A stretch of 64,000 nucleotides of DNA, from assembly GCF_016889425.1 (NCBI RefSeq), contig NZ_CP069513.1:992001-1056000 (forward strand). The letters are read 5' to 3'. The first letter of the stretch is position 1; every line of letters starts with the position of its first letter. This stretch comes from Corynebacterium amycolatum. GTDB taxonomy: Bacteria; Actinomycetota; Actinomycetes; Mycobacteriales; Mycobacteriaceae. The notes below the pieces were generated by a model. That model did no database searches. It was not told where the DNA came from and worked only from the letters and a program-made list of their open reading frames with translations. The position numbers were made by a program, and so were the translations under genes. Below, piece by piece: positions 3,835 through 18,134 of the stretch.

Positions 3835-3937
3835 GCGCTGTTGTAGTCGTGTGTCTTTTGTTGTTGTGCTCCTATTTTTCTGAGATTAGAGGAAGAGTTC
3901 ATCTATTTTTCATCTTTAGGTTCTAGGCTTATTGGCC

Positions 3938-5395
3938 ATGAGCATTTCCCGCCGGGCCTACCTCTCTGTTGCAACTCTTGCTGCAAGTTCAATGGCCGTC
4001 GCGAAAACCTCGGGAGCGTACGGCCTGGAGTACGTCACGTCGGGGCTGGGGCTTACCCAGTCGGATTCCAAGTCGTGGCAGGTACTGGCTAGCGACTTGG
4101 AGGTCATTACTGTTACAGATACGTCAGTGGCATTTACATGGGCAACATATGCTCCGGGAGTGCAGACAGCGTATGGCTTTATTAAACCGACCGTTCCTTC
4201 GGATGAGCGGGTGCTGCTTGCTCCAGCGGATTCAACGCAGCTAGAGCTCGTGCACGAGGGGTACTCAGAGTCGGGCTACCACCATGTGGTCATTGACGGG
4301 TTGGAGCCGGGACGGGAGTACCGCTTTGAGTGCTGGTCCCACAACTGCCGCGCGGTCCCATCGCTGAATATCACCATAAGCAAGACGGCGCCGGAGAAGA
4401 CAGGCGTCGTAAGTACTCTGCCAGCGTTGGCGGGTGCACATTTGGCGACGTTCGCGCTGACGAATGACACACACATTGGTAAGCCCAATCACGACGGCAT
4501 TCGCATTGGCAACCTCGGTCTTTCCTCTGATCCAGGAGAGCAGCCTTTCGCCTCTATGCAATTGCAGGGACTGGTGGACACGGTAAAGGCTGCCGGGTTA
4601 GACACTCTCGTCGTCAATGGCGATTGCACGGATAGCAACCGCCCTGAGGAGTATGACGAGCTCATCAGGGTTTTGGATACTTTCGGTGAGTTTGGGAAAA
4701 ACTGGTTTGTCACCCGTGGTAATCACGATGTGCACCCGCCCGGACTGCCCAATATCAATGGTTTCCGGGGACGCGGAATCCGCAAGGGCAAGACCGCGGT
4801 TCCGGATTACTTCAGCCAGCGTCTTGTGCCGACGCAGCAGCACTGGTCGACTCGCGTCGGCGAAGTGCGTCTCATCGGTGTTGATACCGCCGAGTTTGGT
4901 TATGCAGGTGGGCGTATTAATGAGCGCCAGATGCGTGCATTGCGTGCTGAACTTGCAGAGGATCCAGAGCGTCCGACAATTTTGTTTGCGCACCACCCGT
5001 TTACTCAGGATGCGGTGCGTTCGCATTTCGGTGGTGAGGCATTCATGGTCGAGGCTCAACAGGCCAAGATTTTCCAGGAGATCCTGGCTGCCACGCCGGG
5101 CGCCAAAGGTGTGTTCGCTGGTCATACGCACCGTAGCCGTCGTGGTATTGCTGACTATGGGGATACGGACTTCTGTGAGCGGGGTGCTGCACTTGGCTAT
5201 CCGGGTGGATACACGCAGATTCGAGTGCACACTGACGGTTACCAGATCAGCTACCACCGCACCACAACACCGCAGTCGCTGGCCTGGTCAACGAAGACTC
5301 GTTGGTCGATGTTCGGGTTGGAGCCAGAGTTTATGCTGGGAAAGATCTCCGATCGGAACTACGTCAATTTCTTCAAGAACAAAGTGCCACTCTGA
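3938..5395 (+). CDS. Tat-exported metallophosphoesterase
   Basis: Secreted calcineurin-like phosphoesterase of 485 residues. The N-terminus SISRRAYLSVATLAA is a twin-arginine signal (SRRxYL). An N-terminal beta-rich region (about 50-150) resembles the fibronectin-like domain of purple-acid-phosphatase-type enzymes. The catalytic domain then shows NDTHIG, NGDCTD, RGNHD, AHHP and AGHTHR. It is paralogous to the truncated gene at the left edge; together they bracket the acyl-CoA dehydrogenase pair. I chose the ATG at 3938 over the TTG at 3932. There is no ribosome binding site and a possible -10 (TAGGCT, 3925-3930) ends seven bases before it, so the mRNA may be leaderless. The substrate is unknown. 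Confidence 0.85.
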   Translation: MSISRRAYLSVATLAASSMAVAKTSGAYGLEYVTSGLGLTQSDSKSWQVLASDLEVITVTDTSVAFTWATYAPGVQTAYGFIKPTVPSDERVLLAPADSTQLELVHEGYSESGYHHVVIDGLEPGREYRFECWSHNCRAVPSLNITISKTAPEKTGVVSTLPALAGAHLATFALTNDTHIGKPNHDGIRIGNLGLSSDPGEQPFASMQLQGLVDTVKAAGLDTLVVNGDCTDSNRPEEYDELIRVLDTFGEFGKNWFVTRGNHDVHPPGLPNINGFRGRGIRKGKTAVPDYFSQRLVPTQQHWSTRVGEVRLIGVDTAEFGYAGGRINERQMRALRAELAEDPERPTILFAHHPFTQDAVRSHFGGEAFMVEAQQAKIFQEILAATPGAKGVFAGHTHRSRRGIADYGDTDFCERGAALGYPGGYTQIRVHTDGYQISYHRTTTPQSLAWSTKTRWSMFGLEPEFMLGKISDRNYVNFFKNKVPL

Positions 5396-5544
5396 GCTAG
5401 TGCTAGCTTCTAGCAGGGTACGCTGGGCAACGCATAGTGTTAATGGAAAATACGTAGTGGCAAGTTCCGCTGTGGGCGAAGTCGCAAGCCACCACGTTAT
5501 TGGCCGAGCACAAGTGTGGCTCTGAAGTAATAAGGAATTTAGCG

Positions 5545-6372
5545 ATGACCGACCAGTACAACCCGCGTTCGTCCTCCCCGCAGGATTGGGAGCAGGACGG
5601 TTATGCAACATCTGCCTGGGAGCAGCCGCAGGGTGGGGCTCAAGACGAGTACCAGCCTCAGTACCAGTACCAGTCGCAGGGGCCGAACCAGGGAGGTTCA
5701 CCCCAGCAGTATCCGGCTTATCAGCAGGCTCCGGTACCTGAGCAGAAGAGCAACAACGGTCTGTACGTGGTTTTGGGCATCGTCGGTGTCGCACTTGCAG
5801 CGGTCGCCGGTATCGGTGGCGCGTACTACCTGAATAATTCCTCCGATAATTCCCCGCAGTCTCCCGATACGGTTGCGGCAGGGGACTCGTCGTCAAGCAC
5901 TGCGTCCCCGGCGCCGGTGGAGACGTACACGGAAACCTATACCCAGACCGTCGAGCCGGAAACGACGAAGCAGCCGGAGAGCAGCGCTCCTACCACTACG
6001 CAGCGGGGAAATTTTGGTCTTCGCGCGTTCGGTATGAATCGCGATGATATCGATGCCAAAGGTTGGGTTGGCAGTACCGCTCGCTGCTCGGGTGGGTATT
6101 ACGCGCGTGTGTTGGCGGAGACTTCTTCGGGTAAGGCCGTGATTTGTGAGAACTCCAATAACCGCCAGCAGCGCCATTACATTGGTGACTTCGGTGAGAT
6201 TTCGGATACCCCGGATGCGTACACAGTAGATAGTTTCTCCGGGAACCGTGCTGTCGCGAAAAATGGTGGCTACACGTATACCGTCACTCCGAATGCGGTA
6301 ACCGTGACCCAGGACGGCGAAGAGATTTTCCGTGAGCCCGTCACGGACTACGGTGTTTTGAACGCTGGCTAA
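5545..6372 (+). CDS. Single-pass membrane protein with P/Q-rich cytoplasmic tail
   Basis: Protein of 275 residues, not recognised as a named family. About 70 residues of Gln/Pro/Tyr/Ser-rich low-complexity sequence (repeated YQ and PQ) are followed by one membrane helix (GLYVVLGIVGVALAAVAG), a Ser/Thr-rich linker with ETYTETYTQT, and an extracellular domain of about 110 residues containing two Cys (SARC.. and VICENS). Such an architecture is common in actinobacterial envelope proteins. The ATG at 5545 has AAGGA upstream; an in-frame TTG/ATG further upstream lacks a ribosome binding site. It converges on the acyl-CoA synthetase gene with a shared terminator. Confidence 0.8.
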   Translation: MTDQYNPRSSSPQDWEQDGYATSAWEQPQGGAQDEYQPQYQYQSQGPNQGGSPQQYPAYQQAPVPEQKSNNGLYVVLGIVGVALAAVAGIGGAYYLNNSSDNSPQSPDTVAAGDSSSSTASPAPVETYTETYTQTVEPETTKQPESSAPTTTQRGNFGLRAFGMNRDDIDAKGWVGSTARCSGGYYARVLAETSSGKAVICENSNNRQQRHYIGDFGEISDTPDAYTVDSFSGNRAVAKNGGYTYTVTPNAVTVTQDGEEIFREPVTDYGVLNAG

Positions 6373-6484: not shown

Positions 6485-8209
6485 CTAAGCCACCTTCTCC
6501 TCGGTGACATTCTCCCACGGCTTCGGCAGGTGGCGAGGAACCACCTTGCCGACTGCGTTGCGTGGCAGTTCATCGAGGAACACGGTCTCGCGCGGAACGG
6601 CGAATCGGCTGAGGCGCTGCTTGACGTATGTGCGAATCTGCTCATTGGTCAGGGCGCGGCCCTCAGGGGAGTCGTCGCGGACAACCCAGGCGACCAGGGC
6701 CTGACCGAAGCGCTCATCCGGGACACCTGCGACTGCGCACTCGCGGATACCCTCGAGCTGGCTGAGTGCATCTTCGGTCTGGCGTGGGAAGACGTTCTCG
6801 CCACCGGAGACAATCATGTCGTCCTCGCGACCGGAGATGTAGAGCAAGCCGTTTTCCATGCGACCCAGGTCACCGGTACAGACCATGCCGTCAATGACCT
6901 GCTTGTCCGCGCCCGGGCGGGTGTAGCCCTCGTACAACATGTTGTTGCCGACGAAGATTCGACCGGTCTCGCCGTCGGCGACGCGGTTGCCGTCTTCGTC
7001 GAGAATCTGGACACGAGTGCCCAGCGGTGCGCGACCAGCTGTGGTTGGGTTTGCCTTGAGCTCATCCGGGTTAGCAATGGTTGCCCAGCTGACCTCCGTG
7101 GAACCGTACTGGTTGTAGAGAACCGGCCCGAAGCGCTCGAGGGTCTTGGTGACAATTCCCTCTGGAATAGCCGAACCGCAGGATGCGATGACCTTTAGCG
7201 ATGTCGCGCCGATGTCGTAGTTGTCCGGGAGAATCTCAATCATGCGCTGCAGCATGGTCGGCACCAGGAAGATGGTGTGCGGAGAGTGCTGCTCGATAAT
7301 GCGCAGGCTGTCGGCTGGATCGAACTTGCGGCGCATAATCATGGTGGAACGCAGTGCGATGCACAGCTGCGCAGTCGCGAATCCCCAGGTGTGGAACAGC
7401 GGAGCCGCAAGGTAAGCCGGGCGACGCTGACGCAGAGGAATTCGGCTCATGATGGAAGATGCCGGCATCCAGCTGCGCGGCTCCGGACGCTTGGCACCCT
7501 TTGGAGTGCCGGTGGTTCCGGAAGTCAGAATAATAACGCGGCCACGGCGCGGGCGGGTTGGCAGCTCGGCGGTCGGCCACTTTGCCGGCGGTGCTGTCTT
7601 CAGCATCTCCTGCATGGAGGTCCAGCCCTCGCGAACGCAGGAGGTGTCACCGTAGTTTTCAAACCACGACACGGCGACCGGGCACTCATCGAAGTCCTCC
7701 GGCAGCATGTGAGTGAATTCCTCATCAATGAACAGGAAGTCAATCTTCTGTTCACGAATTACGGCCAGAGTCTGCTCGGCGGAGGCGCCGGTATTGAGCA
7801 GCACCAGGTCGGTGCCGAGACGACCGTGGGCACACAGAGCCATAATGAAACCGCGGTGGTTGCGAGCCAGCACACCGATGCGGTCGCGCTGCTGAATATC
7901 GCCGTGACGGAGTGCTCGCGCCAGGGCAGTGGAGCGCTCGTGCAGCTCCTCGTAGGTCAGCGAGCCGCCATCATCAATAATCGCAGTGTGGTGCGGATCG
8001 CGGCCGGCTGCAATGCCGAGGAGACCAGCTGGCAGGAAGTCCCAGCGGTAGATGGAACTTAATGCCTTACCAGCCGCGCCGGGCCCCATCGAGCCGAGGA
8101 CGCCAGCCTGAGTCACCGGTGCGAGTCCGAGAACGAGGTCCGAGGTAGCTCGCGAAGCTTTGCGCACCTTATTGAGAATCGAGGTCTGTGGATTAGATGT
8201 CATAGTCAC
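6485..8209 (-). CDS. Acyl-CoA synthetase (AMP-forming, FadD family)
   Basis: Fatty-acid/aryl-CoA ligase of the ANL superfamily, 574 residues: activates a carboxylic acid to the acyl-adenylate and then the CoA thioester. Motifs in order: the P-loop ILTSGTTGTPKG (about 233), the A5-like YNQYGSTEVSW, the A8 hinge ISGREDDMIVSGGENVFP, and the A10 catalytic Lys in RNAVGKVVPR. It is similar in type to mycobacterial FadD12/FadD2. The start may be GTG 8209 (GGAAG 5 bases upstream) or ATG 8203. With the two acyl-CoA dehydrogenases nearby it suggests a fatty-acid degradation neighbourhood. The substrate is undetermined. Confidence 0.9.
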   Translation of the reverse strand: MTMTSNPQTSILNKVRKASRATSDLVLGLAPVTQAGVLGSMGPGAAGKALSSIYRWDFLPAGLLGIAAGRDPHHTAIIDDGGSLTYEELHERSTALARALRHGDIQQRDRIGVLARNHRGFIMALCAHGRLGTDLVLLNTGASAEQTLAVIREQKIDFLFIDEEFTHMLPEDFDECPVAVSWFENYGDTSCVREGWTSMQEMLKTAPPAKWPTAELPTRPRRGRVIILTSGTTGTPKGAKRPEPRSWMPASSIMSRIPLRQRRPAYLAAPLFHTWGFATAQLCIALRSTMIMRRKFDPADSLRIIEQHSPHTIFLVPTMLQRMIEILPDNYDIGATSLKVIASCGSAIPEGIVTKTLERFGPVLYNQYGSTEVSWATIANPDELKANPTTAGRAPLGTRVQILDEDGNRVADGETGRIFVGNNMLYEGYTRPGADKQVIDGMVCTGDLGRMENGLLYISGREDDMIVSGGENVFPRQTEDALSQLEGIRECAVAGVPDERFGQALVAWVVRDDSPEGRALTNEQIRTYVKQRLSRFAVPRETVFLDELPRNAVGKVVPRHLPKPWENVTEEKVA

Positions 8210-8391
8210 TCATCTTCCGTGGTTCATGTCCTGTGGTCTTCGGAGAGGCCTAATCAGGCGAAACCTCATCGGTAGGACTGCCGATTTAGTTTCTTTTACA
8301 GTAAGAATAAGTGTCCTAGGTCACTTTTGTGCGCCTTTTTGCAAAATTTTTTATCAGAAACGAATAGTTGTGAAGATATGAGGCGTGACCA

Positions 8392-8664
8392 GTGAAGATG
8401 GTCAAGTATCAGTTCTCTTTCGCAGCTCAATGGGTGCTGACCTTAGCCGGGGAGGGTTCTGGTTTGGAGCTGATTCTTTTGGGGAAAGCTCCTGAAACGT
8501 GTTCTAATCCAGCTGCGCCCTCGACTCGGTGGCGAAGGGCGAACCTATCCGATACGACTCCAGTCCAGACCACTACGGTGACGTCGACTGAGGAGCTGGA
8601 CGATGATCGCGATGACGTTGATGACACGGATGATGATCGTGACGATGACCGTGTGAACAATTAG
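8392..8664 (+). CDS. Doubtful small ORF with Asp-rich tail
   Basis: Open frame of 90 codons from a GTG, with no convincing ribosome binding site or known family. The last 25 residues are almost all Asp with Arg/Val/Thr (DDDRDDVDDTDDDRDDDR), after a Thr-rich stretch. The first part looks neither like a signal peptide nor a domain. It could be a real small acidic protein, or the surviving end of a decayed secreted protein. It lies between the acyl-CoA synthetase promoter and the perfect palindrome at 8712. Confidence 0.3.
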   Translation: MKMVKYQFSFAAQWVLTLAGEGSGLELILLGKAPETCSNPAAPSTRWRRANLSDTTPVQTTTVTSTEELDDDRDDVDDTDDDRDDDRVNN

Positions 8665-8711
8665 TCTTCTAATCGGCGCCGTAGATTTTGTGAATTATCG
8701 GCCCCACGTAA

Positions 8712-8751
8712 CCCATGAACCCCAGCTCACTAGTGAGCTGGGGTTCATGGG
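8712..8751. terminator. Perfect 40-nt palindrome, probable bidirectional terminator
   Basis: Twenty bases followed directly by their exact reverse complement, centred on ACTAGT. It lies between the doubtful ORF at 8392-8664 and the convergent membrane-protein gene ending at 8773. There is no U-run on either side, so it might act as an mRNA-stabilising hairpin or cruciform instead. Confidence 0.6.
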
Positions 8752-8772
8752 CGTTTATGGCAGGGACGCTAT

Positions 8773-9480
8773 TTATTGTTCTTCAGTGTCCGGTTTCTTA
8801 TTGAGCTCAGCGGCATTACTGACCTTTTCGGCAATATCTGTGGCCTTTTCCTCTGCGTCGGCCCATGGCCCAGAGTCAGAGACCCACACATTGAGCCGAA
8901 GATAATCATCATTGTGGATGATTGATTTTAAGTAGCCGTCGGTTAATTTCCCTGTCTTGTCGTCACTACTTTCTCCGCTAACTAGAATGATGATCTCCCC
9001 GTCGGGATTTTCGAACTCGTACGAGCAGCCAACGCCTAGGGAGCCCCAACTAGTCTGTTGCGCCCCTGTTTCTGCGGGCATGTAGTCGCGAGCATCGCAG
9101 ACGTTCAGCCAGTCGAGCGCCTTTTTGTAGTTATAAGCGGCTGCGGCAGCTTGGTCGGACTTGAGGCTCTCGCGATGAGTTTTCGAGTTCTTGTCCTCCA
9201 GCTCATCAATCTTTGTTTGCAGCTCGCTTTCCCGCTCCTCTGCCTGCTGTTGCAACGAGTAAATCTCTTCATTCGCGCTTGCAAGTTCGGACTCAGCATT
9301 CTTACCGCCCATGGCAAAACCTGCCGCGCCGGCAACAATCACTCCGACTGCGCCAAGGATGAGCGGCAACGTCAATGGCTTACTCTTTCCGGACTTAGTG
9401 CCGAAAGCTCTCTCCGACACTTTCTCGGAAGTGCCCGACTGGTTGCTATTCCACGGATCGATGGGTTCGTGAGTGCTCAT
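8773..9480 (-). CDS. Membrane-anchored coiled-coil protein
   Basis: Protein of 235 residues, not assigned to a family. An N-terminal cytoplasmic tail of about 35 residues is followed by one membrane helix (LTLPLILGAVGVIVAGAAGFAM), a predicted coiled coil (about 60-105, LQQQAEERESELQTKIDELE), and an extracellular domain with two Cys (NVCDARDY and GVGCSYEF). It starts two bases after the stop of the lipoprotein gene, so the two form an operon. This operon is divergent from the Hsp70/kinase cluster across the inverted repeat at 10320, suggesting shared control. Confidence 0.75.
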   Translation of the reverse strand: MSTHEPIDPWNSNQSGTSEKVSERAFGTKSGKSKPLTLPLILGAVGVIVAGAAGFAMGGKNAESELASANEEIYSLQQQAEERESELQTKIDELEDKNSKTHRESLKSDQAAAAAYNYKKALDWLNVCDARDYMPAETGAQQTSWGSLGVGCSYEFENPDGEIIILVSGESSDDKTGKLTDGYLKSIIHNDDYLRLNVWVSDSGPWADAEEKATDIAEKVSNAAELNKKPDTEEQ

Positions 9481-9482
9481 TT

Positions 9483-10232
9483 TTATCCGACTACCTTTAC
9501 TTTCTGTGCAATTGTGATGGGTTCGAATCCCGGTTGCTGGGCTGTCACAGCAACGATGTATTCACCGGGTCCTGTAAACGTTGCGTAGGCCTTCTCCCCA
9601 AACCGGCGAACGATTTGGCAAGGAGTATGTTGTCCAGTCACACCTGCGCTGGCACTTGCAGTCGGCTTGCCTTCGGCATCGTAGACCTCCACCTTGTTTT
9701 CGCAGGTTTCAGTTCCTCCGGTCTGGCTGAAATTCCACAGCAACCTGACGTTTGCTTCGCCATCAACCAGGGGATAGGTCAACAGGCTATTGGCCCCCTC
9801 GAAAGGAAACGTGATCCGAGCAGTGTCGAAGCCGCCCAATTCTTTTTGGTGAGCAGTTGCGTCAATCTTGACGTTTTGGCGCTTGGCGCTGCCAGGCTCC
9901 ATGCCGCCAATTTTGGTCAGCTCCATCGAGCTGTTCAGCGTTACTACACCAGAGTCATCGTCCGAATCCGAAAGTTCGCTGTTGGGAGAATTCTTATCCT
10001 GCGAACTGTTGGCATATTCCTGTTCTGGATCTTCCGACTCGGTCGAACTCTCAGTCGAGCTAGGGGTCTCGGATTGTGCATCAGAAGCAGGGGACGTTTC
10101 TGTAACTGTCACCACTGCGGGGGACTCCGGGGCAGCGTTGTTAGTGGGCATACCTGAGCAGCCAATCAGGGTCAGGGCAGTCGCGGCGGCTGCCGCAGCC
10201 AAAACGTGCTTTGAATGAAACTGGGATGACAT
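9483..10232 (-). CDS. Lipoprotein with Ser/Glu-rich linker
   Basis: Predicted secreted lipoprotein of about 249 residues from ATG 10232. A signal peptide ends in the lipobox LIGC (LTLIGCSG), followed by a roughly 80-residue low-complexity Ser/Thr/Glu/Asp linker and a beta-rich domain with one Cys pair (TETCENK and HTPCQIV). The C-terminal GPGEYIVAVTAQQPGFEP looks like an Ig-like or PKD-type strand pattern. The start at 10232 is preferred over 10280 because it has GGAGG upstream and starts a normal signal peptide. It is the first gene of a two-gene operon divergent from the Hsp70/kinase cluster. Function unknown. Confidence 0.75.
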   Translation of the reverse strand: MSSQFHSKHVLAAAAAATALTLIGCSGMPTNNAAPESPAVVTVTETSPASDAQSETPSSTESSTESEDPEQEYANSSQDKNSPNSELSDSDDDSGVVTLNSSMELTKIGGMEPGSAKRQNVKIDATAHQKELGGFDTARITFPFEGANSLLTYPLVDGEANVRLLWNFSQTGGTETCENKVEVYDAEGKPTASASAGVTGQHTPCQIVRRFGEKAYATFTGPGEYIVAVTAQQPGFEPITIAQKVKVVG

Positions 10233-10319
10233 GGGCGTTAAAAACCTCCGAGTTAAGCGCCGAATAAGCGTTTTCTTCATCTGCTTGACGACGCTATAGC
10301 GGAGGCCTCAGAAGCGGTA

Positions 10320-10333
10320 CGGGAGTTCTCCCG
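10320..10333. promoter_or_regulatory. Operator-like inverted repeat (shared motif, copy 1)
   Basis: CGGGAGTTCTCCCG, a 14-base inverted repeat in the divergent region between the lipoprotein operon and the membrane/Hsp70/kinase operon. Its reverse complement differs in only one base from the second of two tandem copies at 18494-18521. The recurrence at both ends of the block suggests a common DNA-binding regulator, identity unknown. Confidence 0.5.
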
Positions 10334-10424
10334 GTGACTTTCACTACCCGTGCAGGTTTAACTAAATCCTGTCGGGTTCAGCGAATTAATCGTTGGACAA
10401 AGGATTGAGGGAAAGAACCGTTTA

Positions 10425-11183
10425 ATGAACCTCCAACAGCTGAAAGATGTGGCCAAAAGCTACTTCTCAAAAACCACAGATATTGTGAAGGGTGTTCCAG
10501 ATCGTACTAAAGGTTGGCGCGGTGATTTGGAGGATCAAGGAATTATTCCAAACCGTGTTGGTGTAGATCAAGAAGGTCGTATCATTCCGCCATTTTTTGT
10601 TTGGTGGGCACCCTGGATGTTTCGAGTCGTACTCATTATCGCCGGATTCATAATTGGCGGAATTTTGGAATCCATCAATAGTGGACCATATCCAGATACG
10701 GCGATGTTGATTCCATTCGCCATGGGGTTTGCGATGTGGTTCTTGCGAAATCAGACTAGTTGGATTCCCGGCCTCATTATCACGGTGCTGGCAGTCACCG
10801 CAGCATCGCTTATGTCTAAAAGCGTCCTTATTTCGCTCGAAGCATTAATCCTTTTCGCTCTCGTAGTCCTAGTGGAATACATCTACGCTCGCGCCGCATT
10901 CGACTACAACACTGCCGCGGCGTTTGAAGAGATGAAGCAGGCGCTTTCCACGTACGGCACTGCCTATGAGCTTGAAGAACGAGAGGACACCAACGTCAAC
11001 GGAGAGACTCTGACAACTGTCTCCGCGCTTGATTCGGGACGCCCTGCTCGGGCAATGATTCGACTGTTGCCGGAGCATGTAGACCCCGGATGGCTTATCG
11101 CAGTAGATCCCGCCAGGCGGTTTATGACAGGCCTATCTCCAGAACAGCGTGTTCGCATCAGTGAGATTCAGGAGCAGATGTGA
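10425..11183 (+). CDS. Four-helix membrane protein, first gene of Hsp70/kinase cluster
   Basis: Protein of 252 residues, no family recognised. A cytoplasmic N-terminus of about 60 residues is followed by four membrane helices (about 64-165: FRVVLIIAGFIIGGILES, AMLIPFAMGFAMWFL, PGLIITVLAVTAASLM, ALILFALVVLVEYIY) and a soluble C-terminal domain of about 85 residues. The start ATG has GAGGGAAAG upstream. Its stop overlaps the GTG start of the next gene (ATGTGA), so the two are translationally coupled. It may anchor or sense for the chaperone/kinase proteins encoded downstream; this is inference from context. Confidence 0.75.
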   Translation: MNLQQLKDVAKSYFSKTTDIVKGVPDRTKGWRGDLEDQGIIPNRVGVDQEGRIIPPFFVWWAPWMFRVVLIIAGFIIGGILESINSGPYPDTAMLIPFAMGFAMWFLRNQTSWIPGLIITVLAVTAASLMSKSVLISLEALILFALVVLVEYIYARAAFDYNTAAAFEEMKQALSTYGTAYELEEREDTNVNGETLTTVSALDSGRPARAMIRLLPEHVDPGWLIAVDPARRFMTGLSPEQRVRISEIQEQM

Positions 11184-12481
11184 GTCTGAATCCCGCAGTT
11201 CGAGACAACCTAGCTGAAAACTTATTTTCACCAGGCGCAGTGCCAACGGGCGCCAAGTTAGCTCAGCTGATTGCTGACATTCCCATGGGCGGAGATGCCT
11301 CTTCCTCGGATTTTTGGGAAGCGCGTGTCCGTTTAATTCGAGACCTGTTGTTCTTCGGTAAGCAGTCCCAGCGCGCACTGGACATTATCGATGAGCTGCA
11401 CACCGAAGATTTTGTCGACGCAGTGCGAAAGAAGTTCGGTGTTTCTTTTCGACTTGTTCTCAAACGAGTACAGCGTCCTCAGTACTTCTTCACTGATGTG
11501 CAGATGAAGGCAGTTAAAGAGGGGTTCTTGAAGCCGTATGCAAAGGGCAGCGGAAAAGCGATTACCGAGCACGGGCTTGAAGAGTTCTTCGATCGGATAT
11601 TGGTTCCAACGTCTAACCGCATGGAGCTCCGTGAATACGTCGACGTTGAAGATAGCCAGGAAATTGAGACTGATCCGACGAACAACGCGGAGAAACGAGT
11701 CTGGGCGGCCTTTGATGAGGCCAGTAGTGCAAATACCGACATTCGGTCGATTGCAGACGTCATTGCGAGCGGTTTTCGTGAACAGTCCGAAGGCTTTATT
11801 GACGGCAAGCCAATCGATAGCGACATGCTGAAGAGTGCAACTAAATCCATCGGTGCGAACTTTCGTACCGGTTCGCCAGAGGCTGAAACCCGCACCGGTT
11901 TTATTCGAAGGTTGCAAGCAGTCGATGATCCAGCGGATTTAGTGACTCGACATACTTTCGGTCTGCTTAACGACGGAACGTCGCTGGACCCAATGAGACT
12001 TCGTAAAGAATTGCAAATTGCTGAGGGAGCCTACTGTTCTAGTTCCGATTCAACAATTGAGAATCGCGTTCTTCAAAACGTCAATCCTGACGATGTCCTG
12101 AAGGCTGATACCGGAAGGGGAAAATCGGATTTTAAGACGCCCCATGCCGGTGAAGGGGATGCGATTGCCAAGGAGTTATTACGATTTCTTTCTCCATTTG
12201 TTGTGCTCGGTTTAATAGTGCAGTTCATGCAGGAGGGTAATGGATTTATTGCTGTACCGGTGCTGGCTATTTTTGTCGGTATCTTGTGGGCGTTGGTAAA
12301 GAAGCGAGTGGCAAAACGATGGATTGCTGTTTTTGGAATCGTATATTTCATTGCCATGGGGGTTATAAATGATAATTTCTATGAATTAGGATGGGTTCTA
12401 TTTTCTATATTTATCATTACATTTGTGTCGATTGCCTATCTATTCGCTAAGGGGAAGGAATATAAAAATGGGGTTCTTTAA
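11180..12481 (+). CDS. Membrane protein with large cytoplasmic domain and four C-terminal helices
   Basis: Protein of 433 residues, no family recognised. The first 310 residues are soluble and mixed helical. Residues about 325-425 form four hydrophobic helices (FLSPFVVLGLIVQFM, FIAVPVLAIFVGILWALV, WIAVFGIVYFIAMGV, VLFSIFIITFVSIAYLF). It contains no J-domain HPD motif. The GTG start overlaps the previous stop and has AGGAG 5 bases upstream. The 3' third (about 12180-12480) is clearly AT-richer than the surrounding genes. It overlaps the GrpE-like gene start by 14 bases, consistent with one coupled transcript. Confidence 0.72.
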   Translation: MSLNPAVRDNLAENLFSPGAVPTGAKLAQLIADIPMGGDASSSDFWEARVRLIRDLLFFGKQSQRALDIIDELHTEDFVDAVRKKFGVSFRLVLKRVQRPQYFFTDVQMKAVKEGFLKPYAKGSGKAITEHGLEEFFDRILVPTSNRMELREYVDVEDSQEIETDPTNNAEKRVWAAFDEASSANTDIRSIADVIASGFREQSEGFIDGKPIDSDMLKSATKSIGANFRTGSPEAETRTGFIRRLQAVDDPADLVTRHTFGLLNDGTSLDPMRLRKELQIAEGAYCSSSDSTIENRVLQNVNPDDVLKADTGRGKSDFKTPHAGEGDAIAKELLRFLSPFVVLGLIVQFMQEGNGFIAVPVLAIFVGILWALVKKRVAKRWIAVFGIVYFIAMGVINDNFYELGWVLFSIFIITFVSIAYLFAKGKEYKNGVL

Positions 12482-13367
12482 TAACAAAAAGGATGAAAAC
12501 AAAAGGTCGGTTAAACATTCAGACGGTCGTGCTGATGAGTATCAGGAACGAGATCCTAAGTATCCGGAGGTTGACTTCGGTGGAGCGCATAATTTCGCCC
12601 CGCTGCCGAATTTTGATGAGTCCTTCGGCCCCCGGGGCACGGTCGACAATGGTGATACCACAGGTCAGGAGCCGGTCGAGTATTCCGGAGATCCAAAACT
12701 AGACACCGACGAAGCTGCATGGTCCAAGGTTGAGAACGTCGAATTTGACGGTGTTGAATTTGGTGGTGCCGAGTTTGGCCATGATGAAGACACCGCGGAA
12801 GGAGTTCCAGCCCAGCAGGATTTTCCTCCCGCGACAGTGGAAGAGCTCCCAGAAACGGATGCTGAAAGTACCGCAGGTGTTGCGGCCGGGAACGTCGTAA
12901 AGCAGTTGGATTTGATTCAAACACGGCTGGACACAATGAACGCAGTATTGCGCTCTCAAAGTGAAGAGTTGGAAGCGCTGACTGATCGTCGTTGGTACGC
13001 CCAGTTGATGCCGCTGGCGGAAAAGTTGGCGGCCATCCATGACGGGATTTGCGCTGACCTTTCGCGGCTCGAAGAAACTACCGAAACTGATGGCAGTGAC
13101 CTGTATTCGACCCTGGATTTCCTGCAGGACTCGATCGCAGATGCGCTTCAGTCCATGGGAGTGGCAATTACAGAGGCGAAGGTGGGCGATGCCTTTGATT
13201 CTTCAATTCACCGTCGTACCAAATTCGCGGATTCGGATAACCCCGCGCTGCACCGCACGCTGGCGCCATCACGACGAATCTCGCACTACTACACCTTCAC
13301 CAGTTCTACCAGTCCAATTGTGGTGGCCAAGGCGCCGGTCACGGTGTACCGGCACAGCGGCAACTAG
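12468..13367 (+). CDS. GrpE-like protein with long acidic N-terminus
   Basis: Protein of 299 residues from ATG 12468 (GGGGAAGGA upstream). Residues 1-140 are acidic and low-complexity (repeated EFDGVEFGGAEFG). The rest follows the GrpE pattern: a helical segment with LDLIQTRLDTMNAVL, AEKLAAIHDGI, LQDSIADALQSMGV, then GDAFDSSIHRR and a beta-rich end with VVAKAPVTVYR. GrpE releases ADP from Hsp70, and an Hsp70 gene follows after 115 bases, which supports the reading. It is diverged from housekeeping GrpE, whose gene would be expected next to dnaK elsewhere. I am fairly sure of family, not of activity. Confidence 0.65.
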   Translation: MGFFNNKKDENKRSVKHSDGRADEYQERDPKYPEVDFGGAHNFAPLPNFDESFGPRGTVDNGDTTGQEPVEYSGDPKLDTDEAAWSKVENVEFDGVEFGGAEFGHDEDTAEGVPAQQDFPPATVEELPETDAESTAGVAAGNVVKQLDLIQTRLDTMNAVLRSQSEELEALTDRRWYAQLMPLAEKLAAIHDGICADLSRLEETTETDGSDLYSTLDFLQDSIADALQSMGVAITEAKVGDAFDSSIHRRTKFADSDNPALHRTLAPSRRISHYYTFTSSTSPIVVAKAPVTVYRHSGN

Positions 13368-13482
13368 GCCAAAACTCGAGTCTGAACAGAGCACAGCTCG
13401 AGTCCGGCCAGCACACAACTAGAGCGCTGACACGGCAAAAGAAGTCAAGAATCCAACAGATTTCAGAATAAGGAGAAAAATC

Positions 13483-15102
13483 ATGGCTGAACGTATTTAC
13501 GGCATCGATCTGGGCACATCCAATAGCGCAATTTCCTACGTGGACTCACTGGGTGTTCCTGTCATTCAAGAAAACCTCGACGGAGATCTGTCGACACCAA
13601 GTGTGGTGTGGTTTGAATCGAAGGCCAATACCGTTGTCGGAAAGCTGGCACGTGAAGAGAAGCTCTTCAGCCCCAATGACGTCATCGAGCTGGTGAAGCG
13701 GAGCATCGGCACCGATAAGAAATGGAATTTCAGCGGGAAGGCGTATACCCCGGAGGAGATTTCTTCATTGATTTTGCGCTCGTTGGTTCCAGACGAAGCA
13801 GCTGACGACGAGATTTCGGCAGTTATTACTGTGCCGGCATATTTTGGTGCGAAGGAGCGCGAGGCAACTCGCAACGCAGGGCAGATTGCTAATTTCAATG
13901 TGTTGGAGCTGGTAGCAGAACCGGTTGCTGCGGCCCTCTACTACGACTCCAAGCAGCCTCTAAAGGACAAGACCTTGCTGGTGTATGACCTCGGAGGCGG
14001 TACATTCGATGCCACGATTGTGCAGGGGATTGACAACACCTTCCGGGTTATTGCCACCGACGGTGATGCTCGACTGGGCGGTGCTGACTGGGATAAGGCG
14101 CTTGGTGAATTTATCCTGGATAAATTCATTGAGCAGACTGGTGACGAGGAGGCGGAAAACGATGAGACCTTCGTCGCTAAGTTGCATGAGCAGACGGTGA
14201 ACTGTAAAGAGGCGCTGAGTAATGCGGAAAGCGCCACTGTGCGACTTGCCAGTGACTCTGGTTCCCGCGCCAAGATTGCCGTTACCCGCGAAGACTTGGA
14301 GCGTGTCACGGCGCCATTGCTCGAGCAGACGGAGATTCCTTTGACCCGTGTATTGGAGACGGCAAAGGAAAAGGAGCCGGGACTGACAATTGATGAGGTC
14401 ATCCTGGTGGGTGGATCTTCGCGAATGACCGCCGTAACCAAACTGGTGGAGCGTCTGACGGGTAAGAAGCCACTGTTGGTTGAGCCTGATCTAGCCGTTG
14501 CTAAGGGTGCTGCCCTTGCTGCGATGATCAGCAAGCTCGGGGGAGTGGTTAATGCTGAGTCCAGCCCTGCTGTCCAACAGCAGTCAATTGCGCAGATCGC
14601 GGCTGAGACAGGGATTGACGCCGGGCAGCTAGCCGCGCTGTCGGAGAAGAAGGTGGCAAATGTATTGCCAAAGTCGATTGGCATTCGAGTTGTCGATCAT
14701 CTGAACAACCCGTACATCGACTATCTGGTCAACCAGAATGACATGATTCCCCTGTCTGAGCCGGTGGTCCGGGAGTATTCGACCGTAGCTGATGGCCAAG
14801 AGGAAGTAGATTTGACGCTGTATCAGCAGGCCAGTGACGTTCCATCCGAAGATGTCGCTCTCAATGACATCATTAGTGGATCGGAATCTATGCTGACAGG
14901 TATCCCGCCGTTGCCCAAGGGTCAGCCAATTCAGGTTAAGTTCTTTGTAGCAGCAGACGGCATGATTACCGTGGAAGGCACTCACGTTCCATCGGGTCGC
15001 TCAATCGAATCCCACGTGCGCATTGGTGTGATGAATGAGGAAGAGATTTCGGCTGCTCGCACGACGATGATGAAGGTTTCTGTCAGCCAAGGAGATAACT
15101 GA
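13483..15102 (+). CDS. Short Hsp70-family chaperone
   Basis: ATP-dependent Hsp70 of 539 residues, shorter than DnaK (about 610-640) and nearer HscC-like proteins. The nucleotide domain is intact: YGIDLGTSNSAISY phosphate 1, AVITVPAYFGAKEREAT, the phosphate 2 loop LVYDLGGGTFDATI, and the adenosine motif ILVGGSSRM. An Ala-rich segment (about 350-385) replaces the usual linker, followed by a beta domain (about 390-510) with the substrate-domain pattern but no helical lid or acidic EEVD-like tail. AAGGAG precedes the ATG. Its stop overlaps the next start (TGATG). It likely works with the GrpE-like protein, and the client may be membrane or kinase components of the cluster (inference). Confidence 0.85.
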   Translation: MAERIYGIDLGTSNSAISYVDSLGVPVIQENLDGDLSTPSVVWFESKANTVVGKLAREEKLFSPNDVIELVKRSIGTDKKWNFSGKAYTPEEISSLILRSLVPDEAADDEISAVITVPAYFGAKEREATRNAGQIANFNVLELVAEPVAAALYYDSKQPLKDKTLLVYDLGGGTFDATIVQGIDNTFRVIATDGDARLGGADWDKALGEFILDKFIEQTGDEEAENDETFVAKLHEQTVNCKEALSNAESATVRLASDSGSRAKIAVTREDLERVTAPLLEQTEIPLTRVLETAKEKEPGLTIDEVILVGGSSRMTAVTKLVERLTGKKPLLVEPDLAVAKGAALAAMISKLGGVVNAESSPAVQQQSIAQIAAETGIDAGQLAALSEKKVANVLPKSIGIRVVDHLNNPYIDYLVNQNDMIPLSEPVVREYSTVADGQEEVDLTLYQQASDVPSEDVALNDIISGSESMLTGIPPLPKGQPIQVKFFVAADGMITVEGTHVPSGRSIESHVRIGVMNEEEISAARTTMMKVSVSQGDN

Positions 15103-15695
15103 TGACCGACGATCGCACTCTAATCCCGGGCGTCGATGACATTGACAGCGGTGCAAATTCCGATACTGATGGTCGAAATCGGAAGATTCTGCTGTTCGTG
15201 CTCGCCATTCTGGTTGTCGTCATCCTGGCAATGGTGGTCTGGATCCTAAATTTCCGCTCTAACCAGCAGGATAACGCCGACGGGTTGTTTGAAACCACTG
15301 AAAGCACCGAAGTGGAAGTCTCGCCGTCCTACTATGTGGGCGATGATCAGGAACCAACCTCGACTACAATCGCACCGCCTGCCGACGATCGGTTCGTAGA
15401 CCCAGAGGTCTTAGCGTCGACCGTTGATCCGACGTGCCCGATGCTGCAGAGTGCCTGGTCAAACCAGGGCTCCGATATGGACTGTGAAGCATATTACGAG
15501 GTAGTGCGGGCGCTCAGTAAACAGCGGCAAGAGCAAGGAACACTGCCAAAGCAGACGACAATCGAGATTGAGTATGACGGTCAGCCACTGACGATGGAAT
15601 GCCAAGAAGTTTCGCCTAATTATGATTGCCGCTCTGAGTCTGGGATTCAGATTATGGTGGGTAATCTCGATGGGTCTGGGCAACGGAACCGATGA
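15102..15695 (+). CDS. Single-pass membrane protein with Cys-containing outer domain
   Basis: Protein of 197 residues of unknown family. About 28 cytoplasmic residues are followed by one membrane helix (ILLFVLAILVVVILAMVVWIL), a Thr/Glu-rich linker, and an extracellular region with four Cys (PTCPML, MDCEAY, MECQEV, YDCRSE) that could form two disulfides. Start overlaps the Hsp70 stop and its stop overlaps the kinase start (ATGA), so it is made in step with both. A partner of the kinase extracellular domain is plausible but not shown. Confidence 0.75.
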   Translation: MTDDRTLIPGVDDIDSGANSDTDGRNRKILLFVLAILVVVILAMVVWILNFRSNQQDNADGLFETTESTEVEVSPSYYVGDDQEPTSTTIAPPADDRFVDPEVLASTVDPTCPMLQSAWSNQGSDMDCEAYYEVVRALSKQRQEQGTLPKQTTIEIEYDGQPLTMECQEVSPNYDCRSESGIQIMVGNLDGSGQRNR

Positions 15696-17287
15696 CTAAT
15701 CTTCCCCAGGTAGGCGATATTTTTGAGGGCTACGAGGTTGAAGCTCTCATCGGTGCCGGCAATATGGGGACTGTTTTTCGAGTACGAAATCCCAAGCTGG
15801 GCCGAAACGAAGCACTGAAAATCGTCCCACTGCCGGAAGAGGCCAGTGCTTCTAAGCGAATGGAGGCACTGTTCCAGAACGAGGTTTCTATCGCAGCCAC
15901 TGTTCACGTTCCCAACGTTGTGACCGTGTTCGATGGCGGGCGAGCCGGGAACCTGCTTTGGTTCACCATGACTCTTATTAGCGGTAATTCGTTGGGCGCT
16001 GAACTGGCCGAATATCCGCCGCGCACTTTCGATAAGAGCGAGGTCATGTCGATTGGTGTGGAGATTGCTACCGCGCTAGATCGGCTAGCAAAGCACGAAC
16101 CAGCGGTGATTCATGGTGATGTAAAACCATCAAATATCGTCGTAGAGCGAGATTCGTCGGGGCTTGTGTTAAGCGCGACGCTTGTGGATTTCGGTGTATC
16201 AACCGCCACTGAAATCGACAGTGTTGGCGTGACCAATCGTGTTGCCGGCTCATTGCCCTACATGGCGCCAGAGATCTTCACTAAGGGTTGCATTAGTGCA
16301 GCTAGTGACGAGTATGCGTTTGCGTGCACGATATTCGAGCTGTTGCAGGGATATAAGGCATTTCCAGCTACTGACGCGGCCAGTGCGCGGCAATTGCACT
16401 GCGGTAAGCGACCGGTTACCAACCTCGGTGCGGTAGTTGATTCGGTCTTCGCCAAGGCGTTGGCGGTTGACGCCGATGAACGCTACGAATCCTGCAATGC
16501 GTTTATTAGCGATCTCATTGCTGCGCTAAATGGTGGTGCCGTCGAGGTTCGCAATCCGAAGAACCGGAAGAAAGCCCTTGCAGCGTTCTCCGTAGTGGCA
16601 TGTCTAGGCCTTATTGGTGGTGGCATTGTTGTTGCCGAACGTAGCGGCATTGGAGATGGCGGTCTCTTTAGTGCCAAGCACTTGGCACAGCCAGTAGCTA
16701 TCGGAGGTTCTGCGGAACCGATGCGACTTCGCGCTCCCGATTTGGCGAAGGGGCCTCGGATTCCGGTGGGTGACCGATGGACCCTTACGTCGTTAAGCGA
16801 CGTCCCCATCGGTGAGAAGAGCTGGCAGGGGATTCAGCGGATGGGAACATTCAACGGTGCTGCATATCACGCGACGCAGTTTGCTTCGGCAGATGAATTC
16901 TTGCTGCCATTTCGCCACGGTATTGATGAGAAGAAGCCGATTGCAGAGGCTGAAAATGACAAATGGCGGGGTGAAATTCTGGATGCCGTGAGCAAGAACC
17001 GGTCAGTGGCTGAACCAGCTGGCTCTGAAGTGGTGAAACTGCGAATGGAGCCCGATGGTCGCCGGCTGGATGTCCTACAAACGTCAGGCTCATTTCAAGC
17101 TGTGAACAGCGAAGGTTCCGAGGCAACACGGCCGATTAATTACTGCTTGGTTCAGCCGGCGGAAAGTTCTGCGCCATCCAGTCCCGAAGTGCTTCGTCCG
17201 GTATTTGTCGTTTTGAGTGAAGGCGATCCTTGTCCTGCTGCCTATGACACGGTGGCGGCGTGGGCAATGCAAACCACGACGAATTAA
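15692..17287 (+). CDS. Membrane Ser/Thr protein kinase (PknB-like)
   Basis: Eukaryotic-type protein kinase of 531 residues. The kinase domain (about 10-280) has the Gly loop IGAGNMGTVF, the ATP-binding Lys in ALKIVP, a catalytic loop HGDVKPSN, DFG and MAPE. The catalytic loop is HGD rather than HRD, making it a non-RD kinase. One membrane helix (about 291-311, AAFSVVACLGLIGGGIVV) is followed by an extracellular domain of about 210 residues without PASTA repeats. It is the second-last gene of the Hsp70 operon, and the FHA-like protein encoded after it would be a natural phosphothreonine-binding partner. Confidence 0.88.
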   Translation: MTNLPQVGDIFEGYEVEALIGAGNMGTVFRVRNPKLGRNEALKIVPLPEEASASKRMEALFQNEVSIAATVHVPNVVTVFDGGRAGNLLWFTMTLISGNSLGAELAEYPPRTFDKSEVMSIGVEIATALDRLAKHEPAVIHGDVKPSNIVVERDSSGLVLSATLVDFGVSTATEIDSVGVTNRVAGSLPYMAPEIFTKGCISAASDEYAFACTIFELLQGYKAFPATDAASARQLHCGKRPVTNLGAVVDSVFAKALAVDADERYESCNAFISDLIAALNGGAVEVRNPKNRKKALAAFSVVACLGLIGGGIVVAERSGIGDGGLFSAKHLAQPVAIGGSAEPMRLRAPDLAKGPRIPVGDRWTLTSLSDVPIGEKSWQGIQRMGTFNGAAYHATQFASADEFLLPFRHGIDEKKPIAEAENDKWRGEILDAVSKNRSVAEPAGSEVVKLRMEPDGRRLDVLQTSGSFQAVNSEGSEATRPINYCLVQPAESSAPSSPEVLRPVFVVLSEGDPCPAAYDTVAAWAMQTTTN

Positions 17288-17438
17288 GCGATAACGCCGA
17301 GAATATTTGTTATATTTCGGATAACTATCATGAATGCCAGTCACTTCAGCCGTCGTTGGGCGATTCCCCCAGGAGCGTTGGGTAGGGTTCCTGATTCGCG
17401 GTTGGTGGCTGGTGGTGCGAGAGAAAGGCCTGGTCAAC

Positions 17439-18134
17439 GTGACATCGCTCCCAACACTTGTGGTTGATAATTTGTGTGGGGATGCGATTGTTGCCAATCC
17501 GAGTGAGGGATTGACCATCGGGCGTGACGCCGACCTCAAAGTGGGCGAAGATAACCGCTACATGCACCGCATAGCAATGTATGTGTATGCGGAATCCGGA
17601 ATGTGGTTTCTGCTCAATAACTGCGAGCACGTGACTGCAATGGTGCACATTCCGGAGGTGTCGCGGTCATTCCGGCTGGCTCCGCAACAGCGTTTTGATT
17701 TGAGCTACCCGGAGTATTTCATCCGCTTTTCCGTCAAGGATGACCAGTACGAAATTCAGATTAAACAGGATATTGAGCACGCCGATGCGAAGGTCGTGCT
17801 GCCAACTGACGGGACTGAAACCATCTCGGTTGGGGAGCTGCCGGAGCGCCAGCGTGCTCTGATCGCTGCATATGCGGAGGATTATCTGCGCGGCCGAATC
17901 GACACCATTATGGTTTCATGCACCGATGCCGAGGCCGGCCGAAAGCTGGGAGGCAAGACCGCAAAGGCAGTCGAGCATTACCGCACCGCACTTTTTGAAT
18001 CCGCTTTGAGCAAGGGGCTGGTCTCAAGCAAGGAGCGGCAACGGGTTAATCAAAAGAGCCGTCTGCAGCTGGTAGTTGTCGCTGCAATCGAAGCACGATT
18101 GGTCACTGCAGACGACTTGAAACTGCTCGCTTAA
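17439..18134 (+). CDS. FHA-like domain protein with C-terminal helical domain
   Basis: Protein of about 231 residues from GTG 17439, which has GAGAAAGG 10 bases upstream and starts just before the domain; the frame is open back to ATG 17334 but that start has no ribosome binding site. Residues about 1-95 resemble a forkhead-associated domain: LTIGRDADLKVG, then NRYMHR where FHA domains have SRxH, and LLNN before the last strands. The remaining half is helical and basic, ending in SRLQLVVVAAIEARLV, and could be a DNA- or protein-binding domain. It follows a Ser/Thr kinase gene, which fits phosphopeptide recognition. Its stop overlaps that of the convergent DUF4236 gene. Confidence 0.65.
   Translation: MTSLPTLVVDNLCGDAIVANPSEGLTIGRDADLKVGEDNRYMHRIAMYVYAESGMWFLLNNCEHVTAMVHIPEVSRSFRLAPQQRFDLSYPEYFIRFSVKDDQYEIQIKQDIEHADAKVVLPTDGTETISVGELPERQRALIAAYAEDYLRGRIDTIMVSCTDAEAGRKLGGKTAKAVEHYRTALFESALSKGLVSSKERQRVNQKSRLQLVVVAAIEARLVTADDLKLLA

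What the first reader, a model, noticed from the sequence alone, without database searches (positions are those of the whole stretch)
8773..18134. Membrane-associated Hsp70/GrpE-like/Ser-Thr kinase/FHA cluster
One coupled run (start/stop overlaps at 11180, 12468, 15102 and 15692) encodes two multi-pass membrane proteins, a GrpE-like protein with an acidic tail, a short lidless Hsp70, a Cys-rich single-pass protein, a non-RD membrane kinase and an FHA-like protein. A divergent lipoprotein/coiled-coil pair shares the promoter region. No J-protein or ordinary DnaK partner is visible. The combination suggests an envelope-linked chaperone machine under phospho-control, which I do not recognise as a described system.
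Basis: partly seen in the sequence, partly recalled or inferred. Interest (0 to 1): 0.85.

Follow-up and report, generated by a model that had tools for sequence, protein, structure and literature searches.

The report
Kinase-linked Hsp70/GrpE membrane gene cluster
A Corynebacterium close to C. amycolatum carries a gene cluster in which a stripped-down Hsp70 chaperone and its GrpE partner, relatives of pairs found beside bacterial GTPase "conflict" systems, are joined to a membrane signalling kinase and two membrane proteins, hinting at a chaperone switched by signals at the cell envelope.

Summary
The cluster is real: nine genes with the four named start/stop overlaps. It is a chimera of two separable modules. 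Module A is a lidless Hsp70 (g6) with an upstream GrpE-like gene (g5). It is related to GrpE-Hsp70 pairs in loci with a GAP1-N2 gene in other Corynebacterium, the "HSP70 and GrpE" theme of PMC7159879. G000 has no GAP1-N2 or DO-GTPase2 match, so here the pair stands apart from that system. Module B is a membrane kinase (g8) with an atypical FHA protein (g9), widespread without Hsp70 (FHA-like gene in 53 of 242 genus genomes; kinase within about 3 kb in 14 of 14 loci I fetched). Both modules with g3 and g4 occur together in 6 of 201 Corynebacterium genomes. The Hsp70 keeps ATPase motifs but lacks the J-domain docking residues and linker of DnaK, which fits the missing J-protein. Most likely it is an envelope-sensing, kinase-coupled, J-independent Hsp70 remodeller. 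Anatomy and relatedness are supported; function is inferred.

The parts
5500..6372 (+). g0: single-pass membrane protein (true start perhaps near 5548), possible outlying member
   Evidence: Its G101 counterpart (L042 17762-18619, 52.5% identical) clusters with membrane proteins of kinase/FHA-like loci (8-locus cluster); an acyl-CoA-synthetase-like gene (by eye) lies between it and the cluster
8773..9480 (-). g1: coiled-coil, single-pass membrane protein with 2 Cys beyond the TM; found only in the amycolatum-type loci
   Evidence: 68, 95 and 74% identity to G069, G034, G101
9483..10280 (-). g2: lipoprotein (Cys after a hydrophobic leader, by eye)
   Evidence: homologues in L043, L044, L053 and 5 of 14 kinase/FHA loci
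10425..11183 (+). g3: membrane protein, 3 TM, C-terminal part
   Evidence: in the fetched loci, homologues outside the amycolatum-type loci only in L043 and L044
11180..12481 (+). g4: N-terminal all-helical domain (about 300 aa) plus 4 TM; fold without match
   Evidence: 7 of 201 genus genomes; model mb46cca5d418b, no PDB fold match at E <= 0.001
12468..13367 (+). g5: GrpE-like protein with acidic N-terminal tail
   Evidence: alignment A1; A1 profile hits PDB GrpE 4ani E=2.4e-7; window-type-only profile vs GAP1-type GrpE prob 98.9
13483..15102 (+). g6: lidless Hsp70 with ATPase motifs kept, J-docking residues and linker changed
15102..15695 (+). g7: single-pass protein with 4 Cys beyond the TM
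   Evidence: only a weak profile link, mainly over the TM region, to the Cys-bearing membrane proteins of other loci
15692..17287 (+). g8: membrane Ser/Thr kinase, HGD (non-RD), one TM, extracytoplasmic part
17433..18134 (+). g9: atypical FHA domain plus helical C-terminal domain; GTG start inferred from the alignment (ORF opens at 17334)
   Evidence: alignments A2/A4; model m3517e8baa228, FHA and SMAD chains at probability 1.0 but none at E <= 0.001

Best explanation
The locus is a chimera. A GrpE-Hsp70 pair related to those of GAP1-N2 systems sits in one unit with a membrane kinase/FHA signalling module, a helical membrane adaptor (g4) and a second membrane protein (g3). Shown by comparison: the parts, their relatedness, recurrent co-location, and change of the J-docking site with the ATPase motifs kept. 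Inferred: the kinase's outer part, with g1, g2 and g7, senses a state of the cell envelope; the kinase phosphorylates cytosolic partners (candidates are the acidic GrpE tail and g4); the FHA-like protein reads or relays this; and Hsp70/GrpE, recruited by g3/g4 instead of a J-protein, spends ATP to assemble or take apart a membrane complex.
For: The window Hsp70 clade (100/100) falls with 13 GrpE-coupled Hsp70s, seven of them from loci with a GAP1-N2 gene, on the side of the tree away from DnaK (94/98, just under the tool's star threshold, loci). Co-location of g2-g6, g8 and g9 in three lineages: the amycolatum-type loci, G039 with another divergent arm, and G007 in another order at another site. 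g6-g7-g8 overlap. J-docking triad R/N/T of the own DnaK reads E/A/V and linker VLLLD reads KKVAN, while GIDLGT, the VKR Lys and DLGGGTFD are kept. Hsp70, kinase and FHA-like have dN/dS 0.02-0.05 against G034 and G101. Locus GC 52.5% vs 58.5% for the rest of the window.
Against: Module B commonly exists without Hsp70: 53 of 242 genomes have an FHA-like gene but 7 of 201 a close Hsp70 relative, and G131 has lipoprotein, kinase, FHA-like and g4 homologues without a close Hsp70 relative. None of 15 GrpE loci fetched in the order has a kinase or FHA-like hit. Three GrpE-coupled Hsp70s (L095, L101, L103) fall on the DnaK side of the tree. A 115 bp gap separates g5 from g6. No phosphorylation, binding or ATPase data exist. 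FHA-like lacks Ser of SxxH and NG. The promoter/terminator scan was no better than shuffles.
Confidence: 0.45

Rival explanations
1. A reshaped conflict (for example anti-phage) system: the Hsp70/GrpE pair keeps the role it has beside GAP1-N2 GTPases, with the kinase and membrane proteins replacing the GTPase core as sensor and effector (membrane damage by g3/g4).
For: Kinship with GAP1-N2-linked pairs; low GC, patchy spread, apparent block loss in G087; the last 133 residues of g4 are replaced in G101 (35% vs 95% identity for the first 300) and g1 has divergent alleles; a GAP1-N2 system lies about 16 kb away in G034 and G101, tubulin-type in G034 by Pfam.
Against: PADLOC hits are generic kinase hits and one weak Hsp70 hit; g4 has no match in the plasmid collection, and g9 has one unverified phage record that looks bacterial; no effector domain recognised by Pfam; no defence assay.
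Confidence: 0.25
2. Two neighbouring but functionally separate units: a kinase/FHA signalling operon and an Hsp70/GrpE operon that happen to lie together.
For: No Hsp70 hit in the 14 kinase/FHA loci fetched; no kinase or FHA-like hit in the 15 GrpE loci fetched in the order; 115 bp gap between g5 and g6.
Against: g6 overlaps g7 and g7 overlaps g8; the set recurs in G007 at another site and in another order, and in G039; g4 overlaps g5; what is left in G087 looks like one deletion of most of the set.
Confidence: 0.2
3. A regulator or assembly helper of a type VII-like secretion or other surface export system.
For: In two distant relatives the kinase/FHA-like genes lie by an EssC-like ATPase (L177 by NCBIfam, below the model's cut-off; L175 by similarity to it).
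Against: No similar ATPase in the window or in the Corynebacterium loci searched (L042-L056, L144-L157; not searched genome-wide); the Corynebacterium loci do not show the PP2C-FHA-kinase-FHA-like block of the relatives.
Confidence: 0.1

Closest known systems
GAP1-N2 DO-GTPase systems, HSP70 and GrpE theme (eLife 2020, e52696, PMC7159879; author names recalled: Kaur, Burroughs, Iyer, Aravind)
   Same: GrpE gene beside a short Hsp70; related to g5/g6; GAP1-N2 systems are said to work near the membrane
   Different: No GAP1-N2 and no DO-GTPase2 match in G000, G069 or G007; no FNIII, DnaJ or TPR match in the proteins scanned; kinase, FHA-like, g3 and g4 instead
GAP1-N2 systems, kinase theme (same paper)
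   Same: A protein kinase described as catalytically active, sometimes with TM helices
   Different: That theme is described with PP2C and vWA genes; none was recognised in this cluster, and the paper calls its themes non-overlapping
DnaK-DnaJ-GrpE
   Same: Hsp70 ATPase motifs, substrate-binding beta domain, GrpE partner
   Different: No lid, J-docking residues and linker changed, no J-protein recognised in the cluster; the genome has the ordinary dnaK-grpE-dnaJ set near C1:883304-886001
Actinobacterial membrane Ser/Thr kinases (PknB, PknE, PknI) with FHA partners
   Same: Kinase fold, single TM, outer part, FHA-type neighbour
   Different: HGD instead of HRD, no PASTA match, FHA with degenerate motif and a helical C-terminal domain

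Membership tests
GAP1-N2 GTPase-centric system | DO-GTPase in the genome or locus | tested here: not met
   No PF19993 match in G000, G007, G069, G087, G131; matches in G060, G034, G101 and, below cut-off, G039. DO-GTPase1 was not searched genome-wide
GAP1-N2 GTPase-centric system | GAP1-N2 protein | tested here: not met
   No PF20013 match in G000, G007, G069, G087, G131; 11 of 16 genomes searched match
GAP1-N2 GTPase-centric system | FNIII-repeat protein, DnaJ/TPR fusion | tested here: not met
   No such Pfam match among the 10 proteins scanned; FNIII was not searched genome-wide
GAP1-N2 GTPase-centric system | HSP70 plus GrpE genes of this lineage | tested here: met
   Tree (94/98), gene order, profile match prob 98.9
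Hsp70 | ATPase motifs (GIDLGT, Lys, DLGGGTFD) | tested here: met
   Aligned with own DnaK; the residue after GIDLGT is Ser instead of Thr
DnaK-type Hsp70 | Helical lid, J-docking residues, hydrophobic linker | tested here: not met
   E. coli numbering R167/N170/T173 and their role are recalled
GrpE | Pfam GrpE above its cut-off | tested here: not met
   g5 has no PF01025 match; relatives L046, L050, L051 pass it, L043 does not, nor L044
GrpE | Profile similarity to solved GrpE over helix and beta head | tested here: met
   A1 (9 rows, most of them GAP1-type) vs 4ani E=2.4e-7, 3a6m 7e-4, 1dkg 0.008; coiled-coil chains of other proteins start at 0.0075. A window-type-only profile vs two canonical GrpE is weak: score 34.2, 20 shuffles up to 16.5
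FHA domain | FHA-type beta sandwich | tested here: met
   Foldseek: FHA chains at probability 1.0, E 1.6e-3 and weaker, none at 0.001 or below; SMAD MH2 (related fold, recalled) ranks first; model pLDDT 73.6; no Pfam FHA match
FHA domain | pThr motif GR, SxxH, NG (as given in PMC1262709) | tested here: not met
   GR and H kept; Ser and NG absent in the window and in the 18 relatives aligned
Ser/Thr kinase | Kinase domain with catalytic Asp, DFG, APE | tested here: met
   HGDVKPSN, DFG, APE; PF00069 1.5e-31
Type VII secretion | EssC/EccC-like ATPase nearby | tested here: not met
   None among the window ORFs with the L177 query; genome not searched

The most novel reading that the evidence does not exclude
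A J-protein-independent Hsp70/GrpE machine switched by a membrane kinase: the kinase and FHA-like protein replace the J-protein as the factor that decides when and where Hsp70 acts, using phosphorylation of the acidic GrpE tail or of the membrane adaptor g4 to direct ATP-driven remodelling of an envelope complex.
Probability: 0.3. Interest if true: 0.85.

Novelty: new variant of a known kind. Interest (0 to 1): 0.55.

Why it matters
Hsp70s normally act where J-proteins send them (established knowledge, recalled). A family that keeps the ATPase motifs and an exchange-factor relative but lacks the J-docking site of DnaK, and that lies beside a sensor-type kinase, would be a natural test of what else can direct an Hsp70. 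It also suggests that the Hsp70/GrpE part of the predicted GAP1-N2 conflict systems can work apart from the GTPase core, which makes the question of what that pair does testable in a small, self-contained cluster.

Tried and rejected
Ordinary second DnaK operon: rejected by the tree, missing lid, changed J-docking residues and non-canonical GrpE. GAP1-N2 system proper: rejected, core genes not found. Kinship of g3/g4 with the GAP1-linked membrane proteins (cl28): profile comparison gave nothing (probability 8.5% or less). Known defence system: PADLOC gave only generic kinase hits and one weak Hsp70 hit. Fold of g4: no match. Mobile origin: g4 no match in plasmids; g9 one unverified phage record that looks bacterial. 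Regulatory signals: no excess over shuffles. The search for related loci in genome contigs with g9 gave two loci, both amycolatum-type; the search for homologous proteins with g9 and g4 gave 5 and 12 proteins, none named.

Literature: searches. PMC7159879 was read in passages and one part of one section, PMC1262709 in passages; the other papers were seen in listings only. That the combination is not in print rests on those searches of an open-access library only.

Limits: the gene caller used on fetched loci was my own heuristic and mis-called some ORFs; L044 was corrected, L176, and L089, L094 and L101. The 14 Corynebacterium kinase/FHA loci were chosen by me (13 of the 53 matching genomes, one twice); a fifteenth region was the G087 remnant. 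L150 has a second FHA-like gene with no kinase within 6 kb. Six loci were chosen from the other-genus matches. The 15 GrpE loci are among the best-scoring matches; 12 of the 15 gave tree rows (L092, L094 and L099 were left out, as were L045 and L049), and L102's Hsp70 turned out to be an ordinary DnaK. One search's list of matches was cut, and its second matches in genomes such as G023, G045 and G055 were not examined.
Full report
The observation. Overlaps are 4 bp (g3/g4), 14 bp (g4/g5), 1 bp (g6/g7) and 4 bp (g7/g8); 115 bp separate g5 and g6, and 145 bp separate g8 from the likely GTG start of g9 at 17433. So there are two coupled blocks, g3-g4-g5 and g6-g7-g8, then g9, with g2 and g1 divergent. 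The stretch has 52.5% GC against 58.5% in the rest of the window, and the window's lowest-GC stretch of that length (8001-17362, steps of 500) nearly coincides with it.

Family identity. g6 is Hsp70 (Pfam 1.8e-88) and g8 a protein kinase (1.5e-31); the other eight of the ten proteins scanned have no match above a Pfam cut-off. Five kinase matches are in the genome, g8 among them; the ordinary DnaK and two DnaJ lie elsewhere. g8 has HGD in place of HRD, with DFG and APE kept.

The Hsp70/GrpE half. In 201 Corynebacterium genomes, seven carry a close relative of g6: G000, G069, G034, G101, G007, G039 and G087 (100, 100, 100, 99, 62, 56 and 61% identity; the last is truncated). Of the next matches I fetched eight loci. 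Six (G060, G120, G179, G158, G156, G148; 38-45%) have a GrpE-like gene directly upstream and a GAP1-N2 gene in the same 20 kb; in L046 and L050 DO-GTPase2 matches were seen too. The other two (G159, G174) have a different neighbour, with DnaJ and TPR matches in L052; they were not searched for GAP1. G248 and G292 of another family also have GAP1-N2 in the locus. This corresponds to the HSP70 and GrpE theme of GAP1-N2 systems in PMC7159879 (passages and one section part read). Of 15 loci fetched around good GrpE-profile matches in the order, 14 have an Hsp70 match directly beside the GrpE match: in pieces in L099, an ordinary DnaK in L102, on the other strand in L101. L092 does not, and none of the 15 has a kinase or FHA-like hit.

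Tree. In 27 rows the window Hsp70 forms a 100/100 clade with G101, G007 and G039. With 13 GrpE-coupled rows it lies apart from DnaK at 94/98, just under the tool's star threshold. Three other GrpE-coupled rows (L095, L101, L103) fall on the DnaK side; L101 and L103 have long branches. The window clade has a long stem and the root is a midpoint, so its exact sister is unsure.

GrpE identity rests on profiles. A1, with nine sequences of which six are GAP1-type, matches solved GrpE 4ani at 2.4e-7, 3a6m at 7e-4 and 1dkg at 0.008; coiled-coil chains of unrelated proteins appear from 0.0075. A profile of only the three window-type sequences matches the GAP1-type GrpEs strongly (score 117.8; best of 20 shuffles 18.3) but two canonical GrpEs only weakly (34.2; best shuffle 16.5). 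No structure model of g5 was made.

J-docking site. Against the genome's own DnaK, VLRIVNEPTAAAL reads VLELVAEPVAAAL in g6, and the linker VLLLD reads KKVAN; the five GAP1-linked relatives aligned differ at the same three residues. GIDLGT, the Lys of the VKR motif and DLGGGTFD are kept. That these three residues dock the J-domain is recalled knowledge. The Hsp70s of L052 and L054 keep two of the three, and L052 has an adjacent protein with a DnaJ domain (1.2e-9).

The kinase/FHA half. The A4 profile of g9 finds relatives in 53 of 242 genus genomes. In 14 of 14 loci fetched (13 genomes, chosen by me) a kinase match lies within about 3 kb, and 5 of the 14 have a g2-like match; single-pass membrane proteins recur. 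In the order, 26 of 200 genomes match, G000 among them. Six loci fetched all have a kinase match within about 4.4 kb, and three of them (L172, L173, L176), like L177, have the block PP2C, FHA, kinase, FHA-like. The g9 model (pLDDT 73.6) matches SMAD and FHA chains at probability 1.0, best E 1.3e-3 and 1.6e-3, none at 0.001 or below. The GR and His of the phosphothreonine motif are kept; Ser and NG are not (motif as in PMC1262709).

Together or apart. The complete set is in G000, G069, G034, G101, G007 and G039: 6 of 201. In G007 it lies at another place with kinase and FHA-like on the other arm; in G039 it is beside clpC as in the window, with a second kinase in the divergent arm. A kinase/FHA locus without Hsp70 also lies beside clpC in G065, though in another orientation; this weakly suggests that the signalling module was there first. 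G131 has lipoprotein, Cys protein, kinase, FHA-like and g4 homologues but no close Hsp70 relative. G087 keeps an FHA-like end abutting a truncated Hsp70, with no g4 match, between flanking proteins 95-99.5% identical to those of G007. That looks like one deletion (inference), so the block seems dispensable.

What varies. Against G034 and G101, Hsp70 has dN/dS 0.02, kinase 0.03-0.04 and g9 0.03-0.05; G069 is too close to measure. The g5 tail has 0.28 and 0.47 against 0.04 and 0.02 for its GrpE half; in G069 the tail is identical. The last 133 residues of g4 are 35% identical in G101, with saturated dS, against 95% for the first 300. g1 is 68, 95 and 74% identical (dN/dS 0.42, 0.12, 0.28) with raised dS in the two divergent copies. 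So g4's end and g1 look like replaced alleles rather than sites of proven positive selection. As a control, clpC gives 0.28, 0.08 and 0.02, so single values at low dS are noisy (all). The membrane and outer parts change while the engine is held constant, as expected of a sensor or of a part facing a changing partner.

Verdict. The cluster is a recurrent chimera of two known kinds of module with two membrane proteins of its own. The mechanism proposed, kinase-directed and J-independent Hsp70 remodelling at the membrane, is inference. The nearest rivals are a reshaped conflict system and two unrelated neighbours.

Noticed in passing
L150 2682-3842 (-), genome G039: A 386 aa membrane protein related (2e-10) to the membrane partner of GAP1-linked GrpE/Hsp70 pairs lies near FHA-like and kinase genes: a possible second link between the two modules.
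   Followed up: partly
L177, MT835585.1 (labelled Bacteriophage sp., unverified): Looks like bacterial DNA: PP2C-like, FHA, kinase and FHA-like genes and an EssC-like type VII ATPase in a row.
   Followed up: partly
L105 and L106 (G034, G101): A GAP1-N2 system lies about 16 kb from the Hsp70 gene in these two relatives (tubulin-type by Pfam in L105; L106 has the same layout); no GAP1-N2 match was found in G000 or G069.
   Followed up: partly
L053 3813-5423 (-), genome G131: A 536 aa protein next to the Hsp70-less version of the cluster looks like a WXG/PPE-type secretion substrate by eye.
   Followed up: no
L052 8749-11391 (G159) and L054 7977-10790 (G174): Another short Hsp70 beside a related membrane protein, which has DnaJ and TPR matches in L052: a J-linked counterpart.
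   Followed up: partly
L044 15713-17266 (+), genome G039: A second membrane kinase with Cys beyond its TM in the divergent arm of the cluster.
   Followed up: no
window 47-934 and 3932-5395: Two similar metallophosphoesterase-like proteins (by eye) near the cluster, separated by two acyl-CoA-dehydrogenase-like genes (by eye).
   Followed up: no
L057, NZ_JVVM01000022.1: Record labelled C. vitaeruminis carries a locus whose cluster proteins are 95-99.6% identical to the window's (as G034, L056), as C. amycolatum SK46 has a close one, so the label may be wrong.
   Followed up: no
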